From the IMG/VR virus record IMGVR_UViG_3300003690_003155, positions 1 to 64,000 of that record: a stretch of DNA of 64,000 bases; one strand, given 5' to 3'. Below the pieces are notes generated by a model. That model was not told the DNA's origin and did not search any database. It saw only the letters and a list, made by a program, of their open reading frames with translations. Origin of the DNA: a virus. The stretch's first letter is position 1. The number at the start of each line of letters is the position of its first letter. Positions 2,686-11,535 of the stretch are shown here, in pieces. Made by a program: the position numbers and the translations under genes.

Positions 2686-3195
2686 ATGAAAGATAAAGAC
2701 GCACAACTAATGATGGAAGCCTTACAGAAGTCTCATGAAGATAAAGAAATTACAACTGAGGGAGTTGGAACGGCCGCCGCGATGGTGGGTTTAGGTGCTG
2801 TTGGTGGCGCTCTTGCGAGTAAATTTTATGATCGCTTAGAAAAAAAGTGGAAAAGAAAGAAAGTATCTAAACATAAAGATGACTATCACGTTGAGCAAGG
2901 ACCAGTCGCCGATGTTGGTCGAGGCCTCGATGAGATAGTTCAGAATATTAAAAACTTTTTTAATAATGGTCAGGTTGATATTCCAAACACTGGAAATTGG
3001 GTTGAACTAACTGATGATCCTGGGATTAACCTCGCCGGTGAGTTAGAAGTTATTATGATTGGTATCGTTAAAGGCGCTCATGTCGAGCCACCCTTTGAAC
3101 CTGACAAATGGAGTGACGATGACTACAGAAAATGGCGAGATGATCCTAGATGGGGTAAACCTGGCGGACCTGGATCGCCGCCGCCTGGAAATTAA
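2686..3195 (+). CDS. Leader-bearing protein with glycine-zipper hydrophobic segment
   Basis: 169 residues starting with the leader MKDKDAQLMMEALQ. Residues about 24-46 are a Gly/Ala-rich hydrophobic stretch of glycine-zipper type preceded by ITTE, a plausible protease site. A very basic stretch (KKWKRKKVSKHK) follows. A hydrophobic zipper next to a cationic patch is compatible with membrane interaction after delivery into the cell (inference). It starts 1 nt after the previous stop, and the region just upstream contains AAAATATTAAT, a weak late-promoter-like sequence. No named family recognised. Confidence 0.75.
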   Translation: MKDKDAQLMMEALQKSHEDKEITTEGVGTAAAMVGLGAVGGALASKFYDRLEKKWKRKKVSKHKDDYHVEQGPVADVGRGLDEIVQNIKNFFNNGQVDIPNTGNWVELTDDPGINLAGELEVIMIGIVKGAHVEPPFEPDKWSDDDYRKWRDDPRWGKPGGPGSPPPGN

Positions 3196-3199
3196 AGCT

Positions 3200-3565
3200 A
3201 TGAGAGATAAAGACGCACAACTAATGATGGAAGCTTTGCGAGTGAAAGAAGCTGATTACGTACCACCTCATGATGAGGATAAGCTGAAGCGTGCTAGGCA
3301 ACGCGGATATGACGATGATAGCGGACCATTAGATAGAGTTGCTAATTTAGTCATAGATAAATTAGGAGATATAACGGATTATAGTTCATCGGCAGATTAT
3401 TCAGTTAGCGATCTTATTGATGTAACGATAGAAGATGTAGAGTCTGAAATGGGTGAACGGCAACATGATCTTAATGAACCTGACGCTAATGATAAAATTA
3501 AAGATTTAATTATTCGTAATCTTTCTGATGACCGGAGCCATTTAATGCAAGGATATGAACGGTGA
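3200..3565 (+). CDS. Leader-bearing hypothetical protein
   Basis: 121 residues starting MRDKDAQLMMEALRVKEAD. The frame extends upstream to 3059, but the ATG at 3200 begins the 13-codon leader that is nearly identical at DNA level to those at 2686 and 3562, which fixes the start. VKE-A fits a hydrophobic-x-Glu cleavage site. The remainder is acidic and helical, with no recognised family. Its stop overlaps the GTG start of the next gene. Confidence 0.78.
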   Translation: MRDKDAQLMMEALRVKEADYVPPHDEDKLKRARQRGYDDDSGPLDRVANLVIDKLGDITDYSSSADYSVSDLIDVTIEDVESEMGERQHDLNEPDANDKIKDLIIRNLSDDRSHLMQGYER

Positions 3566-3954
3566 GAGATATAGACGCACAACTAATGATGGAAGCCTTA
3601 AGGGAGGCCCGTCTAAGTTTTGAGTATAAAAATGTTGAGGATGACGGCTGGCCTCCGGAGGGCAGAGATTGGTTAGCACATGGAGATCAACCACCACCCT
3701 CAATTCCTGACGGGAGACTATTACCTGATACAGATATTCTCGCAAGGGTAGCCCGAGTGATGGATACTTACAAGCGCTCAGGATCGTCTCCTGCGTTTGT
3801 GAGCGCTATAATAGACGATTTAAACAGATTAATTGATGGCACAGGTGATGCAGATATTCTTCGACACTATGAAGGTTGGGGCATGGATGATATAGTTCAA
3901 CTTGTGGCGATACTCCAAAACAAATTCCGTAACATAGAGAACGATTTAGAATAA
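3562..3954 (+). CDS. Leader-bearing hypothetical protein
   Basis: 130 residues with a GTG start overlapping the upstream stop (GTGA). It begins MRDIDAQLMMEALREARL; LRE-A is a possible cleavage site. The body contains a proline-rich patch and helical segments and resembles nothing I recognise. Only the leader is shared with the two preceding genes, so the family looks like one leader attached to unrelated bodies. Confidence 0.75.
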   Translation: MRDIDAQLMMEALREARLSFEYKNVEDDGWPPEGRDWLAHGDQPPPSIPDGRLLPDTDILARVARVMDTYKRSGSSPAFVSAIIDDLNRLIDGTGDADILRHYEGWGMDDIVQLVAILQNKFRNIENDLE

Positions 3955-5835
3955 ATGATAGATAAAGACGATAGACTGATTGCAGAGAGGTATTCCTCGC
4001 GAGGAAAACTAATCACAGAGGCTGAAGATCCTTACATCGCAGGTAAGGGTTGGCCAAAGTTCGGTCGTTTTCCTGGTGATGATCCTGGTGATGATACAGT
4101 CGCAGCTGGGCGCCCAGATAGTAATCAGTGGCCTTCTTATACTAATCGAGGTACTGAACTGCATATTGGTGCCTATACTCCTGAACGTTCGAAAGAGTTT
4201 GGTCAATACTTCTATGATGTTCTGAGAGCTAACAGTACTACTGTTAGTGATGAAGCAATTCACGCGCACGTAGATAACTGGATAGCTGATCAGCTAGCAC
4301 GCCGAAATCCACCAATAGATCCGACAAATCCACCACCTGAGTGGGCAACTACTATTGAATCTATCAAAGGGCTAGTACCCGCAGCTATGATGGATGCAAG
4401 AGAGGAAGATCCAACAACAGAGATGTATTCTGAAGCTATCCCTCCTCCAGCCCCTCACGCTGAGGCGATGATTCGGGAGGCAGAATACACACCGCCCGGT
4501 TGGCTGCCTGGTACTAATGTACCTCACCCAGATCGGCCAGCGCCGGTGCAGCGCGGGGCATGGGATGTACGTGGTAATGTGCAACCAGCTATTGGCAAGA
4601 CGATGGGAGACACAGTAGCTAAAAAAATAGATACTAACACACCAGAAGGAGCTTCTCAGTATATTGCAGCATGGATTTACGCCTCGACTGACGATGCTGC
4701 AAACACTGGTGAACCACCGCATAAGACTAGTACGGAAGGGTTGTTCGCGGCAGTAGAAGAGCTGTTTGATAGGTTTAATGCTGAACAAGTGAAGTGGATT
4801 AGAGATCAGTTAAGTAGCTTGAGATTTGCTTCAAAATTTGGAGATTCGACTCGAAATTTACTTGTAACTCGCATCGATGATATTACAAAAGAAAAATATC
4901 CACAAACATCAATGGTTGGAGATTTAAAGTCAGTTGAACTTGGAGACATCCCAAAGGATGTTGATTATTCCGGAATGGAACAAGATACGACAACGAATAA
5001 AAAATTTAAAGAGTTTTTCTTAGAGTACGAAGCTGATTTCGGTAAGGATCCTACTCCAGCTGCTGATTTTGGTAAGGCTCCTACTCCACAAGGAGCCCCT
5101 CCGCCAGTGGCCAGCGCACCTGGACCAGTAGGTAATCTGAAGAGTGCACTGATGGCTGCTAAGCCTGGCGATAGTTTTAGTATGATCGAAGTTGGTGATG
5201 CCTTATGGCCTGATGATACAATAACGAATAGACACGCGATTGAATTAAGATTGTATAGGCCTATGAAAATAGGAAGTATCTTTAAAGATATAGCGTTTAG
5301 AGCTAAGCATTTCGATTTTGATACCATGGGCGGGCGCACTGGTGCTCCACAGGGAGGTGGCGGCTGGGATGAATTTATAAAAGAGCTCGAAAGTCAAGTA
5401 GGTGGTACCTGGATGACCGATTATGGTATTGATCAAAAAAACCCAGAAGGTCTAGGTGGCCCAGGCCATAATTTTCAATTTGGTGATGATGTTCCAGGCA
5501 TCGTGAAACTAGGTTGGAATCCATTGAAATGGCCAGAGAATTATAGCAAAGAAATAGATAAAATGGGCATGACTCCTGAAATGAAATGGCTTCCACAAGT
5601 TAAAGTTTGGAAAGTTGACGATGATAATAGAACTCCAGGTACAGTCGGTATGATGGGCACATTTTCGCATGCAGATCCTATGGGGTATTGGAAGAAGAAG
5701 TCAACCACGGCAGGGGCGATTGGTTCTACTGATGCTGATCGTGCAGCAGATACTGCAGATCGACAGAAAAGTAGTGAATACATAGACGCTATAGCTAAAA
5801 AAATGGCCGCTGGTAAGAAAGAGTGGTGGACCTGA
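3955..5835 (+). CDS. Large leader-bearing hypothetical virion protein
   Basis: 626 residues starting directly after the previous stop. The N terminus MIDKDDRLIAERYSS is a diverged leader, with LITEAED as a possible cleavage site. Near residues 345-360 is KKFKEFFLEYEADF, the same FKxFF..E motif as in the first CDS, followed by two 10-residue repeats (ADFGKDPTPA, ADFGKAPTP) that look like a linker. It ends with KKEWWT. It may be two domains joined by a processing site. No enzymatic motif recognised. Confidence 0.75.
   Translation: MIDKDDRLIAERYSSRGKLITEAEDPYIAGKGWPKFGRFPGDDPGDDTVAAGRPDSNQWPSYTNRGTELHIGAYTPERSKEFGQYFYDVLRANSTTVSDEAIHAHVDNWIADQLARRNPPIDPTNPPPEWATTIESIKGLVPAAMMDAREEDPTTEMYSEAIPPPAPHAEAMIREAEYTPPGWLPGTNVPHPDRPAPVQRGAWDVRGNVQPAIGKTMGDTVAKKIDTNTPEGASQYIAAWIYASTDDAANTGEPPHKTSTEGLFAAVEELFDRFNAEQVKWIRDQLSSLRFASKFGDSTRNLLVTRIDDITKEKYPQTSMVGDLKSVELGDIPKDVDYSGMEQDTTTNKKFKEFFLEYEADFGKDPTPAADFGKAPTPQGAPPPVASAPGPVGNLKSALMAAKPGDSFSMIEVGDALWPDDTITNRHAIELRLYRPMKIGSIFKDIAFRAKHFDFDTMGGRTGAPQGGGGWDEFIKELESQVGGTWMTDYGIDQKNPEGLGGPGHNFQFGDDVPGIVKLGWNPLKWPENYSKEIDKMGMTPEMKWLPQVKVWKVDDDNRTPGTVGMMGTFSHADPMGYWKKKSTTAGAIGSTDADRAADTADRQKSSEYIDAIAKKMAAGKKEWWT
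5032..5088 (+). repeat. Two in-frame 10-residue repeats (linker)
   Basis: 5032-5061 and 5062-5088 encode ADFGKDPTPA and ADFGKAPTP. They directly follow an FKEFFLEYE motif, so they may be the linker after a processing site. Confidence 0.8.
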
Positions 5836-8075: not shown

Positions 8076-8115
8076 ATAATTTTCTTTACTTTACCGGGGG
8101 AAACCATGGGGGAAG

Positions 8116-8134
8116 TAAAGTGAAAGTAAAGTGA
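8116..8134 (+). repeat. 11-bp direct repeats upstream of early promoter
   Basis: TAAAGTGAAAG (8116-8126) followed by TAAAGTGAG (8127-8134), ending 8 nt before the -35 box at 8143. An opposite-strand copy (CTTTACTTTAC) lies about 25 nt upstream. The same unit occurs three times at 9639-9671 before another early promoter. Likely a regulator site with one-helical-turn phasing (inference). Confidence 0.7.
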
Positions 8135-8142
8135 GATACCAG

Positions 8143-8171
8143 TTGCCGTATCCCCTAGAAGTTCATATCAT
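8143..8171 (+). promoter_or_regulatory. Sigma70 promoter
   Basis: TTGCCG, 17-nt spacer, TATCAT, then ATTGG. The -10 box ends 9 nt before the GTG start at 8181. The spacer contains AGAAG and CAT at the positions where the 8628 promoter has them. Confidence 0.65.
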
Positions 8172-8180
8172 ATTGGCGTT

Positions 8181-8900: not shown

Positions 8901-9050
8901 ATGAACGCTGATTGCGAACAGAAGATGACGGAGAAAGAAACTGATAATCTCAGAGCGTGGAAGCGTTGGGGGTTGCAGATGAAGCTATTGAAGAGTATTC
9001 ACAGAGAGATCGCGCCTAAGAAGCAATTTTTACACAATGCCCTTAACTAA
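8901..9050 (+). CDS. 49-residue early protein
   Basis: ATG at 8901, directly behind the strongest early promoter of the cluster; MNADCEQKMTEKETDNLRAWKRWGLQM..., stop at 9050. Highly charged, basic and helical, no recognised family. The reading frame overlaps the start of the following gene by 14 nt. Confidence 0.6.
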   Translation: MNADCEQKMTEKETDNLRAWKRWGLQMKLLKSIHREIAPKKQFLHNALN

Positions 9051-9576
9051 AGAAGAATTTATACCGCATGGTTTAAGCAGATTTGCTACCACCCCTAAAA
9101 AAAAGATTATGAGTACGAATAGTAAGAAGAACCCCGCCCCAGTGCTGGCATGTGTCATTACTGGACAATCGCGGAAGACATCACACAACTACTTGAACGA
9201 TAAGGCCAAGCGCCTTGGAGTTGCGAGCGATTGGTTGCTTAACAATTATGTTAGCAAGTTTGTTTGTAGTCAGCTGCGCGCTGGTAAAGCGCTTAGTGAC
9301 CTGCAAACGACAGATCTTAAGATCACAGATCAGTTATTGACTGATATGGTTAGGAAGAACTCCAAGAGCCGCATAACAAATTTCTGGTTCAAGAATGGGG
9401 TTTATCAGACATCCAAGCCAACACCCAAGAAGGTTGCGAAGACGAATCCAAAAGTCAACGTTGACGATCTCACCGCAAAGGTGAAGGAAGAGCAAGCTGA
9501 GGCTGCAACGGTCCCGGCACCTGTGAAGGAAGCTACCTTTGATGAGGTGTTGGATGAGCTTACACAGCTAAGCTAA
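9037..9576 (+). CDS. Early hypothetical protein
   Basis: 179 residues from ATG 9037; an in-frame ATG at 9110 (MSTNSKKNPAPVLACVITGQSR) could be the true start. The central part (LACVITGQSRKTSHNYLNDKAKRLGVASDWLLNNYVSKFVCSQLRAG) looks like a small helical domain, and the C terminus is a Lys/Ala/Pro/Glu-rich linker ending in an acidic helix. No family recognised. It is cotranscribed with the 49-residue gene and closed by a terminator. Confidence 0.7.
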   Translation: MPLTKEEFIPHGLSRFATTPKKKIMSTNSKKNPAPVLACVITGQSRKTSHNYLNDKAKRLGVASDWLLNNYVSKFVCSQLRAGKALSDLQTTDLKITDQLLTDMVRKNSKSRITNFWFKNGVYQTSKPTPKKVAKTNPKVNVDDLTAKVKEEQAEAATVPAPVKEATFDEVLDELTQLS

Positions 9577-9593
9577 CCCACGACACAACAACG

Positions 9594-9624
9594 AGAGGTG
9601 AGGATCCATGCGGTTCTCACCTCT
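9594..9624 (+). terminator. Probable rho-independent terminator
   Basis: AGAGGTGAG (9594-9602) pairs perfectly with CTCACCTCT (9616-9624) across a 13-nt loop, followed by the short T stretch TTTGT. It lies 17 nt after the stop at 9576. Confidence 0.65.
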
Positions 9625-9633
9625 TTGTATGCG

Positions 9634-9671
9634 TAAAGTAAAGTGAAAGTAAAGTGAAAGTAAAGTGAAAT
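9634..9671 (+). repeat. Three 11-bp phased direct repeats
   Basis: TAAAG, then TAAAGTGAAAG at 9639-9649, 9650-9660 and 9661-9671 (last base differs). The array ends 5 nt before the -35 box at 9677. Same unit and same relation to a promoter as at 8116-8134. Probably an operator or activator site. Confidence 0.8.
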
Positions 9672-9676
9672 AACTG

Positions 9677-9705
9677 TTGACTTTTTCCGTATCTGGAGCT
9701 ATAAT
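9677..9705 (+). promoter_or_regulatory. Sigma70 promoter driving the C-poor region
   Basis: TTGACT, 17-nt spacer, TATAAT. Unlike the other early promoters here, the first start codon (GTG 9740 or ATG 9773) is tens of nucleotides downstream. Transcription runs rightward into a region almost without C in the transcript. Confidence 0.8.
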
Positions 9706-9772
9706 ATATATTCTGTTTTAGTAAAAGACAGATTAAAAAGTGAAAAATAGTAATAATAATAAAAATAATAAT

Positions 9773-9961
9773 ATGATTAAGATATTAGATAAGAATGGAT
9801 TGGAGATTGAAGTTGGTCAAATTGTTAAGATTAAAGGTAATGATGTTGAAGATTGTGTAGTGTGTGGGTTTGATAATGGTAGAGTAGATGTTATAGAGTT
9901 AGGTGAAGGGTTTGTTATAGATGGTAAAGAGATAGAAGTTGTTAGTGAATTGAATGGTTAA
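9773..9961 (+). CDS. Small protein, probable SH3-like barrel
   Basis: 62 residues from ATG 9773 (MIKILDKNGLEIEVGQIVKI); an in-frame GTG at 9740 would add an Asn-rich extension. I choose 9773 because the next gene starts after the same sequence AAAAATAATAAT-ATG. The pattern of short beta strands with VGQIVKIKG...VVCGFDNGRVDVIELGEGF resembles KOW/SH3-like small barrels and is repeated in the neighbouring protein. No Ala, Pro, Thr or His and only one Gln, because of the C depletion. Confidence 0.65.
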   Translation: MIKILDKNGLEIEVGQIVKIKGNDVEDCVVCGFDNGRVDVIELGEGFVIDGKEIEVVSELNG

Positions 9962-9974
9962 TAAAAATAATAAT

Positions 9975-10319
9975 ATGAAAAAGATAATTAAAGATAGTAT
10001 GAGAGATAGTAATAAGAATTATATATTAGTTTGGTTAGGTGTTGATAATGGTAAGAGTGAAGTTATAAAAGGTGATTTAGATTTATGGATTGGAGGTACT
10101 GAAGTTATAGAAGGGAGTAATAAAGTATGGATGGGTGAAGAGTATATGGTTGTAGAAGTAGAGGTGAGTATGTTAGGTAAAAAGGTAGAGGTGTTAGATG
10201 ATGAAGGTAAGGTTATAGAAGATGGTATATGTATAGGTGTTGATGAGGATGAAGTATTGTTATATGATAGAGGTGAAGGGTTTAGTTGTGATATAAAGAA
10301 TAGTAGAGTAGTTTGGTAG
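9975..10319 (+). CDS. Small protein, paralogue of the upstream barrel protein
   Basis: 114 residues from ATG 9975 (an in-frame ATG exists at 9954). The C-terminal half (KKVEVLDDEGKVIEDGICIG..EVLLYDRGEGF) parallels the upstream protein, including the GEGF motif. The N-terminal half contains WMGEEYMVVEV, sharing 20 identical nt with the gene at 2112. No Ala, Pro, His or Gln and one Thr. Function unknown. Confidence 0.65.
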   Translation: MKKIIKDSMRDSNKNYILVWLGVDNGKSEVIKGDLDLWIGGTEVIEGSNKVWMGEEYMVVEVEVSMLGKKVEVLDDEGKVIEDGICIGVDEDEVLLYDRGEGFSCDIKNSRVVW

Positions 10320-10338
10320 TATAAAAGAAAGATATAAT

Positions 10339-10497
10339 ATGAATAAGAAATATAAAATAGTATATAAGAGTGAGTATACTTTTACTGAAGAGGAAGTAAA
10401 AGGATTAGATAATATAGATAATGTTATACAAGAATGTATTGATCAAGATAGTAGTGAACATTCTGATAAGTCTAATTGGGAGGTAGTAGAAGTATAG
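10339..10497 (+). CDS. 52-residue acidic protein
   Basis: MNKKYKIVYKSEYTFTEEEVKGLDN..., stop at 10497. AGAAAG about 9 nt upstream may be the ribosome site. The beta-strand then acidic-helix pattern is common in tiny phage proteins. C reappears in its second half. No family recognised. Confidence 0.55.
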   Translation: MNKKYKIVYKSEYTFTEEEVKGLDNIDNVIQECIDQDSSEHSDKSNWEVVEV

Positions 10498-10520
10498 TAT
10501 AACTTTTATATAGAGTAGGT

Positions 10521-10549
10521 GAGGCTATATAGACATCCTATATAGTCTC
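10521..10549 (+). terminator. Terminator hairpin
   Basis: GAGGCTATATAG (10521-10532), loop ACATC, CTATATAGTCTC (10538-10549): 12 pairs with one G-T. A pyrimidine-rich tail (TCTTCCTCTC) follows rather than a pure T run, so termination strength is uncertain. It closes the C-poor transcription unit. The rest of the gap to 10666 shows nothing else clear. Confidence 0.6.
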
Positions 10550-10666
10550 TCTTCCTCTCTATAGTACTTAAGTACGAGAATCCGGATTATATAGAGGTTT
10601 CATGGACCCCGGTTCTGAGGGCATGCAAAACTTTTTTTCGCGAATTTTTTTTCATTAGAATTATAA

Positions 10667-10680: not shown

Positions 10681-11535
10681 ATGGATTGGACACCTGGAGA
10701 TTCGAATCACCCTTTAATGGAGAAAAGGAAATTACGAAAATTATTAGGATTTGAACATAAACATGGTCCTCATATTCCCGATGACGATATACAAGCAATC
10801 ATCAACAATCAGCATCACCAATCCCATCGTGCATTATTAACGCCGGATCCGGGAGGTGGATGGTCTATCCAAAAAGTATATTTTAATAAGCGTATTAATA
10901 CGATGGATAGGCGTAGATTCGAAAACGAAATAAGAATGTTAACTGAATTAGAGGAGAATTTTACAAATACACCTAAACTCGATTATTATCCATTTCCAAA
11001 GATATTATCAATTGATCATAAAAAATGTTTAACGACGATGACTTACTGTGGTCCTTGTTTAAATAAAACACATGGCTCAGAAGCAGCACACAATTGGGCA
11101 AAAGACAAGCCGAATACTATAGTTAACGAAGTAAATGATATAATAGAATGTATTATTAATAATTTAACAAATAATTTAATTATATATTCCGACATACATC
11201 CTGGAAATATATGTATTAATAATAATAATCTATTCTTAATTGATTTTGACAGTGCTTATTTCTTAAGAAAATCATCACCAGAAGCTACAAGAGAATTTTA
11301 TTCTGATTTTTACGACAAAAAACACATTATGTTAAATGATAGAAACCGTAAAATATCTGTAGAGTCCATGGCTATCTTAATTAATAAACTTGACAGTAAT
11401 GAAGATGTAAATAATGGAACCTGGAGACCGGTTAACTGTTCACATCATAAAGCTCCTAAGCCATTAAAAGCCGGAGCCAACATATGGCATATATTAACTA
11501 TGTTAGAATTGCCAATCTCTCCAGAGACATTATAA
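10681..11535 (+). CDS. Protein kinase-like protein
   Basis: 284 residues from ATG 10681 (the frame is open from a TTG at 10675). Kinase-fold landmarks in order: Lys in WSIQKVYF (about 65), Glu in RRRFENEIRML (about 80-84), catalytic loop IYSDIHPGNICI (about 169-180; Asp and Asn present, His-Arg replaced by Tyr-Ser), and metal-binding LIDFDSAYF (about 185-193, DFD instead of DFG). All key catalytic residues appear present. It could phosphorylate protein, as T7 kinase does, or a small molecule as APH/LPS kinases do. Substrate unknown. Confidence 0.7.
   Translation: MDWTPGDSNHPLMEKRKLRKLLGFEHKHGPHIPDDDIQAIINNQHHQSHRALLTPDPGGGWSIQKVYFNKRINTMDRRRFENEIRMLTELEENFTNTPKLDYYPFPKILSIDHKKCLTTMTYCGPCLNKTHGSEAAHNWAKDKPNTIVNEVNDIIECIINNLTNNLIIYSDIHPGNICINNNNLFLIDFDSAYFLRKSSPEATREFYSDFYDKKHIMLNDRNRKISVESMAILINKLDSNEDVNNGTWRPVNCSHHKAPKPLKAGANIWHILTMLELPISPETL

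What the first reader, a model, noticed from the sequence alone, without database searches (positions are those of the whole stretch)
9730..10378. 649 nt of transcribed, coding DNA with only two cytosines on the + strand
Seen base by base: C occurs at 9818 and 10099 only, while G is frequent. Two full genes are affected; their proteins almost lack Ala, Pro, Thr, His and Gln. This is not simple A+T richness, because only one of the two bases is lost. The tract starts right after a sigma70 promoter with phased repeats and stops near a terminator. Possible meanings (inference): a G-rich, C-free RNA that forms a stable R-loop, as in T4 replication origins; escape from a C-targeting enzyme; or the footprint of strand-specific C deamination on the non-template strand.
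Basis: partly seen in the sequence, partly recalled or inferred. Interest (0 to 1): 0.9.

Follow-up and report, generated by a model that had tools for sequence, protein, structure and literature searches.

The report
Phage mini-operon purged of cytosine
A marine T4-like phage carries a small, self-contained gene cassette whose message strand has been stripped of almost every cytosine, a diverged sister copy in another phage is stripped in the same way, and an unrelated gene in a cultured Flavobacterium phage shows the same thing, so some unexplained pressure removes one RNA letter from single phage genes.

Summary
Window 9730-10378 has C only at 9818 and 10099, against 179 G; the next longest C-free run in the 122-kb record is 58 nt. 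No synonymous C remains in 127 codons that could carry one, and Ala/Pro/Thr/His/Gln make up 2 of 176 residues. The tract is the transcribed part of a moron-like cassette (terminator, phased repeats, sigma70 promoter, three ORFs, terminator) that related phages lack at an otherwise syntenic site. One diverged phage, L137, has the homologous cassette at the same site, also C-purged (2 C in 265 nt from its predicted start). Between the two copies 10 of 76 substitutions involve C, against 65 of 149 in the neighbouring gene. C-loss is therefore maintained while the protein changes. Gene immuto35A_127 of a cultured Flavobacterium phage is an independent, unrelated case. R-loop propensity is not exceptional. 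C is replaced mainly by purines rather than T, which argues against a plain deamination footprint. A gene under the same promoter type has normal C. Best reading: selection on the mRNA, most likely for an open, unpaired message in a Shine-Dalgarno-less translation system. The mechanism is inferred.

The parts
9037..9576 (+). Conserved upstream gene (179 aa) with ordinary C content; left border of the insertion site
   Evidence: 87% and 80% aa identity to L099 and L117; synonymous C not depleted (38 seen, 27 expected)
9593..9626 (+). Terminator-like hairpin at the left end of the cassette
   Evidence: Sequence (GAGAGGTGAG...CTCACCTCTTTG); L137 has a hairpin with a T7 run at the same place. The terminator scanner did not list it.
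9634..9670 (+). Phased repeats AAAGTAAAGTG, 11-nt period, upstream of the -35 (UP-element-like; function inferred)
   Evidence: same repeats before the L137 cassette and before another gene of this phage at 8113
9677..9705 (+). Sigma70-type promoter TTGACT-17-TATAAT; predicted start near 9712
   Evidence: 11 of 12 consensus matches; the promoter region itself holds C (6 in 9672-9712)
9712..9732 (+). 5'-terminal RNA hairpin UCUGUUUU-AGUAA-AAGACAGA; its stem holds both C of the leader (9713, 9729)
9730..10378 (+). C-purged tract: 2 C, 179 G in 649 nt, over leader, ORF1, spacer, ORF2, spacer and start of ORF3
9773..9961 (+). ORF1, 62 aa, pI 4.2, related to the C-terminal domain of ORF2 (shared GEGF motif, DNA AGGTGAAGGGTTT)
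   Evidence: 0 of 47 possible synonymous C
9975..10319 (+). ORF2, 114 aa, pI 4.4; two small beta (SH3/KOW-like) domains; its halves match two separate genes of L137 in the opposite order
   Evidence: 0 of 80 possible synonymous C
10339..10497 (+). ORF3, 52 aa, C-poor (7 C in 159 nt)
   Evidence: its start TATAATATGAATAAGAAATATA is shared with L137 gene 2
10521..10563 (+). Terminator-like hairpin followed by a CT-rich tail; present at the empty site in relatives
   Evidence: Fold z = -2.69 for 10490-10600; same hairpin plus (CT)n in L135-L138
10566..10596 (+). Conserved boundary element ACTTAAGTACGAGAATCCGGATTATATAGAG, right border of the insertion site
   Evidence: Found in L117, L133-L138 directly after the terminator

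Best explanation
A moron-like early transcription unit, with its own promoter and terminators, inserted between two conserved units of a T4-like marine phage. Its message is under continuing selection against cytosine. Shown: strand-specific loss of every avoidable C; coincidence with the (predicted) transcribed region; maintenance in a diverged copy; an unrelated second case. Inferred: the selection acts on the RNA. Most likely form: the phage translates without Shine-Dalgarno sequences, so initiation depends on open RNA. Removing C, the only strong partner of G, is the cheapest way to make a whole mRNA unpairable while keeping the G-rich codons for Val, Gly, Asp and Glu. C is kept only in the 5' hairpin, where two amino acids need it, and towards the 3' end and terminator, where the demand ends. 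The encoded acidic SH3/KOW-like proteins would then be made early and strongly.
For: Synonymous C: 0 of 127 (window ORF1+2), 0 of 45 (L137 gene 1), 1 of 80 (immuto35A_127), with about 55 expected. Substitutions involving C: 10 of 76 in the cassette, 65 of 149 in the upstream gene, P = 2.7e-6. C-loss covers leader and spacers as well as codons. RNA folding energy -0.080 kcal/nt, against a mean of -0.194 over 51 genome windows; the least structured window that does not overlap the tract is -0.114. C9713 and C9729 sit in the 5' hairpin stem. SD use 5 of 95 genes, as in Bacteroidota phages (immuto 1/19, cr11 1/39), against Mosig 15/37, S-T4 11/31, T4 33/41. In Flavobacterium johnsoniae, which lacks SD, initiation is tuned by mRNA structure and upstream A (PMC6847099); the leaders here are AAUAAUAAUAUG-like.
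Against: Given its composition the RNA is not less folded than dinucleotide shuffles (z = 0.73), so avoidance of structure beyond C-loss is not seen. Openness near start codons would not by itself demand zero C across whole ORFs. Other genes of the same phage, equally SD-less, have ordinary C. The host is unknown and the promoters are TATAAT-type, not the Bacteroidota type. Only two copies of the cassette and one independent case are known. No expression data.
Confidence: 0.4

Rival explanations
1. Rho-proofing: Rho loads on C-rich, G-poor, unstructured RNA. A C-free, G-rich message is the exact opposite of a rut site, so the AT-rich cassette cannot be terminated early; a CT-rich, G-poor stretch appears only behind the final hairpin.
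For: YC dinucleotides: 2 in the transcript, against a mean of 54 per 649 nt. C is replaced mostly by G and A. CT-rich, G-poor tail at 10535-10566 (9 C, 2 G). rut sites defined as C-rich/G-poor in PMC9160355.
Against: Lowering C would be enough; zero C is more than Rho avoidance needs. Translation normally shields mRNA. Neighbouring genes with 15-20% C manage. Host Rho unknown.
Confidence: 0.15
2. Per-cytosine hazard in RNA: the unit stays expressible when CTP is scarce, when a CTP chain terminator such as ddhCTP is present, or when an endoribonuclease cutting at C-containing motifs is active (compare ACA-less mRNA and MazF).
For: Every avoidable C is gone, as expected if each C carries a cost; depletion is strongest 5' and relaxes in the last ORF in both copies, as expected for a hazard met during elongation. 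ACA-less messages resisting MazF are an established principle (literature located).
Against: No viperin, CTP-depleting system or C-specific RNase was looked for in a host, which is unknown. Does not explain the gain of G. A few C remain, so the operon is not wholly CTP-independent.
Confidence: 0.15
3. Mutational footprint: a transcription-coupled process deaminates C on the displaced non-template strand, and C to T over time empties the sense strand.
For: Strand-specific; begins at about the start of transcription and fades downstream in both copies; remaining C are almost all required by amino acids.
Against: T is not raised: 31.9% against 30.1% for the genome's coding strands, while G rises from 18.9 to 27.6 and A from 36.2 to 40.2. 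Tract is the most purine-rich 649-nt window. The same promoter type at 8113 drives a gene with 19.8% C. Only one gene or cassette per genome is affected. No PF00383 deaminase in the record.
Confidence: 0.14
4. R-loop-forming replication origin, as at T4 oriF/oriG.
For: Strong promoter followed by A+T-rich, G-over-C DNA, as at T4 origins with their unwinding element (PMC3016281).
Against: Hybrid-minus-duplex energy of the tract (-0.045 kcal/nt) is exceeded at several other places (minimum -0.089); no QmRLFS initiation zone. T4 origin R-loops need no specific sequence and their unwinding element is replaceable (PMC3016281). Six related records lack the cassette at this site.
Confidence: 0.07
5. 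Chance, A+T richness or assembly artefact.
For: Small acidic proteins use few C codons.
Against: Synonymous test log10 P = -14.6; independent homologue in another contig with the same promoter and site; a second case in a sequenced isolate.
Confidence: 0.01

Closest known systems
Phage morons / single-unit early-gene cassettes of T4-like phages
   Same: Own promoter and terminator, small ORFan products, inserted between conserved genes, patchily present
   Different: No described moron known to me lacks one base on its sense strand
T4 R-loop origins oriF (uvsY) and oriG
   Same: Promoter followed by A+T-rich DNA in a T4-like genome
   Different: Not a conserved locus of the family; hybrid energy not exceptional; T4 origins are not described as C-free
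ACA-less (MazF-resistant) mRNAs
   Same: Codon choice and residues that keep one word out of an mRNA
   Different: There by design and only one triplet; here natural and the whole base
Flavobacterium phage immuto gene immuto35A_127 (MW353176.1, 68286-68642)
   Same: Small acidic ORFan in an array of small genes, own promoter-like upstream sequence, 5 C in 354 nt, neighbours normal
   Different: No sequence relation found; single gene; promoter looks Bacteroidota-type

Membership tests
Phage moron / autonomous early cassette | Present in one phage and absent from relatives at an otherwise syntenic site | tested here: met
   L099/L133, L117/L134, L135, L136, L138 and L139 lack it; L137 has it
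Phage moron / autonomous early cassette | Own promoter and terminator | tested here: met
   Promoter 11/12; hairpins at 9593-9626 and 10521-10549, as sequence features only
Phage moron / autonomous early cassette | Expressed independently of neighbours | not testable with these tools
   No transcript data
T4-type R-loop origin | Transcript forms a persistent R-loop and primes replication | not testable with these tools
   Needs DRIP/S9.6 and origin mapping
T4-type R-loop origin | Hybrid-favouring sequence stands out in the genome | tested here: not met
   -0.045 kcal/nt against a minimum of -0.089 elsewhere; no QmRLFS zone
T4-type R-loop origin | Locus conserved in related phages | tested here: not met
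   Absent from six related records
C-deamination footprint | C lost to T, pyrimidine content unchanged | tested here: not met
   Tract pyrimidines 32% against 45% in coding strands; G and A gained. Ancestral composition unknown.
C-deamination footprint | Other units under the same promoter affected | tested here: not met
   Gene behind the 8113 promoter has 19.8% C
SH3/KOW-like small beta-barrel proteins | Fold similarity above noise | tested here: inconclusive
   Model pLDDT 70.5; best PDB match E = 0.03 (Spt5/DSIF KOW domains), none below 0.001

The most novel reading that the evidence does not exclude
Some phage early genes belong to an undescribed class of 'C-less' messages: RNAs purged of one nucleotide so that they are transcribed, spared or translated under a condition in the infected cell that blocks ordinary, C-containing RNA (CTP poisoning or limitation, a C-dependent nuclease, or Rho). 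The class would recur in unrelated genes and phages.
Probability: 0.25. Interest if true: 0.9.

Novelty: new variant of a known kind. Interest (0 to 1): 0.72.

Why it matters
Loss of one base from one strand of one small operon, kept up while the proteins diverge and found again in an unrelated gene of a cultured phage, points to a strong pressure on RNA (or on exposed DNA) that current models of phage gene expression do not describe. The cultured Flavobacterium phage makes the question testable at the bench, and the simple signature (no avoidable C in a gene among ordinary neighbours) can be searched for in all phage genomes.

Tried and rejected
Protein homologues of the ORFs in Pfam, PHROGs, PADLOC and GenBank phages: none convincing. 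Viral-contig search with ORF2, and with the downstream kinase-like gene: nothing. Promoter-pattern scan: only L137 plus the chance match L142. Motif scan AGGTGAAGGGTTT in C-free context: only L137 plus chance matches. Bacterial genomes: one marginal short match, L143, not pursued. DNA modification as the cause: no thymidylate-synthase/hydroxymethylase, deaminase or C5-methylase family in the record, which may be incomplete. R-loop energetics and QmRLFS: not exceptional. Structure of ORF1: model too poor to use. An all-D pattern cannot be scanned over whole collections, so the global frequency is unknown; 50 related records and 14 GenBank phages were checked instead. cr11_1 (6 C, 61 G in 250 nt) was set aside because its tract is GATAATAAT-like repeat; matches in Lak-A1 and G016 are A+T-rich and G-poor.

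Full report
Setting. The window is positions 1-64000 of a 122,091-b linear virus record. It is a distant T4-like virus: tail sheath and terminase are about 35-36% identical to pelagiphage and cyanophage T4-likes. The host is unknown. Only 5 of 95 genes have a Shine-Dalgarno core, as in Bacteroidota phages (immuto 1/19, cr11 1/39) and unlike Mosig (15/37), S-T4 (11/31) or T4 (33/41). Gene starts were taken mechanically, so these are estimates.

The observation. 9730-10378 holds C only at 9818 and 10099, with 179 G. In the whole record the next longest C-free run is 58 nt and the next skew over 649 nt is 0.416. The effect is present at both levels of coding: no synonymous C in 127 codons that could carry one (about 26 expected, log10 P -14.6), and 2 instead of about 37 Ala/Pro/Thr/His/Gln (P about 1e-15). 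Leader and spacers are affected too. Genes on either side are normal.

Anatomy. From left to right: conserved gene (9037-9576), terminator-like hairpin (9593-9626), 11-nt phased repeats, promoter TTGACT-17-TATAAT (9677-9705), predicted start near 9712, a 5' hairpin whose stem contains the only two leader cytosines, ORF1 (9773-9961), ORF2 (9975-10319), ORF3 (10339-10497), hairpin with CT-rich tail (10521-10563), conserved element (10566-10596). C is absent or nearly so until ORF3 and then returns (bins). ORF1 and the C-terminal half of ORF2 are related, and share the DNA word AGGTGAAGGGTTT. The ORF2 model is two small beta domains; fold matches are weak (KOW/SH3 class, E 0.03).

Relatives. Records with the same neighbouring genes lack the unit: L099/L133 and L117/L134 (87% and 80% identical in the upstream gene), L135, L136, L138, L139. 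In them the upstream gene is followed, with or without a hairpin and CT tail, by the conserved element. So the C-free unit is an insertion of about 0.93 kb. One record, L137 (IMGVR_UViG_3300017750_003648, upstream gene 64% identical), carries the homologous cassette at the same place, with the same phased-repeat promoter. Its gene 1 matches the C-terminal half of ORF2 (63%), gene 2 the N-terminal half (46%). From its predicted start it has 2 C in 265 nt (P 5e-17), then C rises in gene 2. Of 30 differences between the copies over 48 aligned codons, 2 involve C; over both domains 10 of 76; in the upstream gene 65 of 149; other comparisons 44-47%. The C-free state has thus been kept through many substitutions, or re-imposed. 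The cassette occurs in two lineages whose nearer relatives lack it, so it was gained or lost repeatedly.

How unusual. Over 1.38 Mb of related loci (partly redundant) no other 250-nt window passes a skew of 0.66. Of 50 related records only L137's has a G-rich C-free run of at least 103 nt. Of 14 GenBank phages, one gave a comparable non-repetitive case: Flavobacterium phage immuto_3-5A, gene immuto35A_127 (118 aa, 5 C in 354 nt, one synonymous C where 19 are expected). It sits in an array of small genes with 9-15% C, has its own promoter-like upstream sequence, and no homologue outside the immuto isolates. It is unrelated to the window's genes. The last six of the 14 phages were scanned with a longer pattern (about 125 nt), so shorter tracts would be missed there.

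Mechanism. Three facts weigh most: only the sense strand is affected; the boundary lies just inside the predicted transcript, not at the promoter; every avoidable C is gone and those left are nearly all required by amino acids. This fits selection on the RNA. C is replaced mostly by G and A (C -14 points, G +9, A +4, T +2 against the genome's coding strands), so simple C-to-T deamination is not favoured. The same phased-repeat promoter at 8113 precedes a gene with 20% C, so promoter type or strength alone does not produce it. R-loop energetics are ordinary for this genome. The RNA is the least structured long stretch sampled, and C is retained in the one leader hairpin. Since this phage and immuto both appear to translate without Shine-Dalgarno sequences, and initiation in such a host depends on unpaired mRNA (PMC6847099), an open message is my first choice. 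Rho-proofing and a per-cytosine hazard (CTP poisoning or C-motif RNases) are close rivals and could act together. All of this step is inference.

Limits. Transcription start, termination and expression are predicted, not measured. The record may be incomplete. Collection scans use exact word patterns and can miss relatives; metagenome contigs could not be searched. Two cassette copies and one unrelated gene are a small sample.

Noticed in passing
window 10681-11535: Kinase-like gene (ABC1/Pkinase; weak PADLOC matches to PD-T4-6, E 1.6e-5) next to the cassette, also missing from L099 and L117; a second insertion at the same hot spot.
   Followed up: partly
window 2686-3960; L099 and L117: Several neighbouring genes begin with the same 35-45 nt coding MRDKDAQLMMEAL-like starts, repeated in relatives; possibly a shared N-terminal tag such as a capsid-targeting signal.
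   Followed up: no
window 10566-10596; L117, L133-L138: Element ACTTAAGTACGAGAATCCGGATTATATAGAG and a hairpin with (CT)n tail recur between units in relatives; may be a unit border or regulatory site.
   Followed up: partly
window 8113-8180; L099 7223: A second copy of the phased AAAGTAAAGTGAAA promoter, before a DUF6900 gene with normal C content.
   Followed up: yes
L166:8286-8642 (MW353176.1 68286-68642): C-purged ORFan immuto35A_127 in a cultured Flavobacterium phage.
   Followed up: yes
L167:8300-8600 (MT774383.1): crAss-like phage cr11_1 has a G-rich, C-poor GATAATAAT-like repetitive stretch (6 C, 61 G in 250 nt).
   Followed up: no
L137:1469-1828 versus window 9975-10319: ORF2 looks like a fusion, in swapped order, of the two small genes of L137.
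   Followed up: partly
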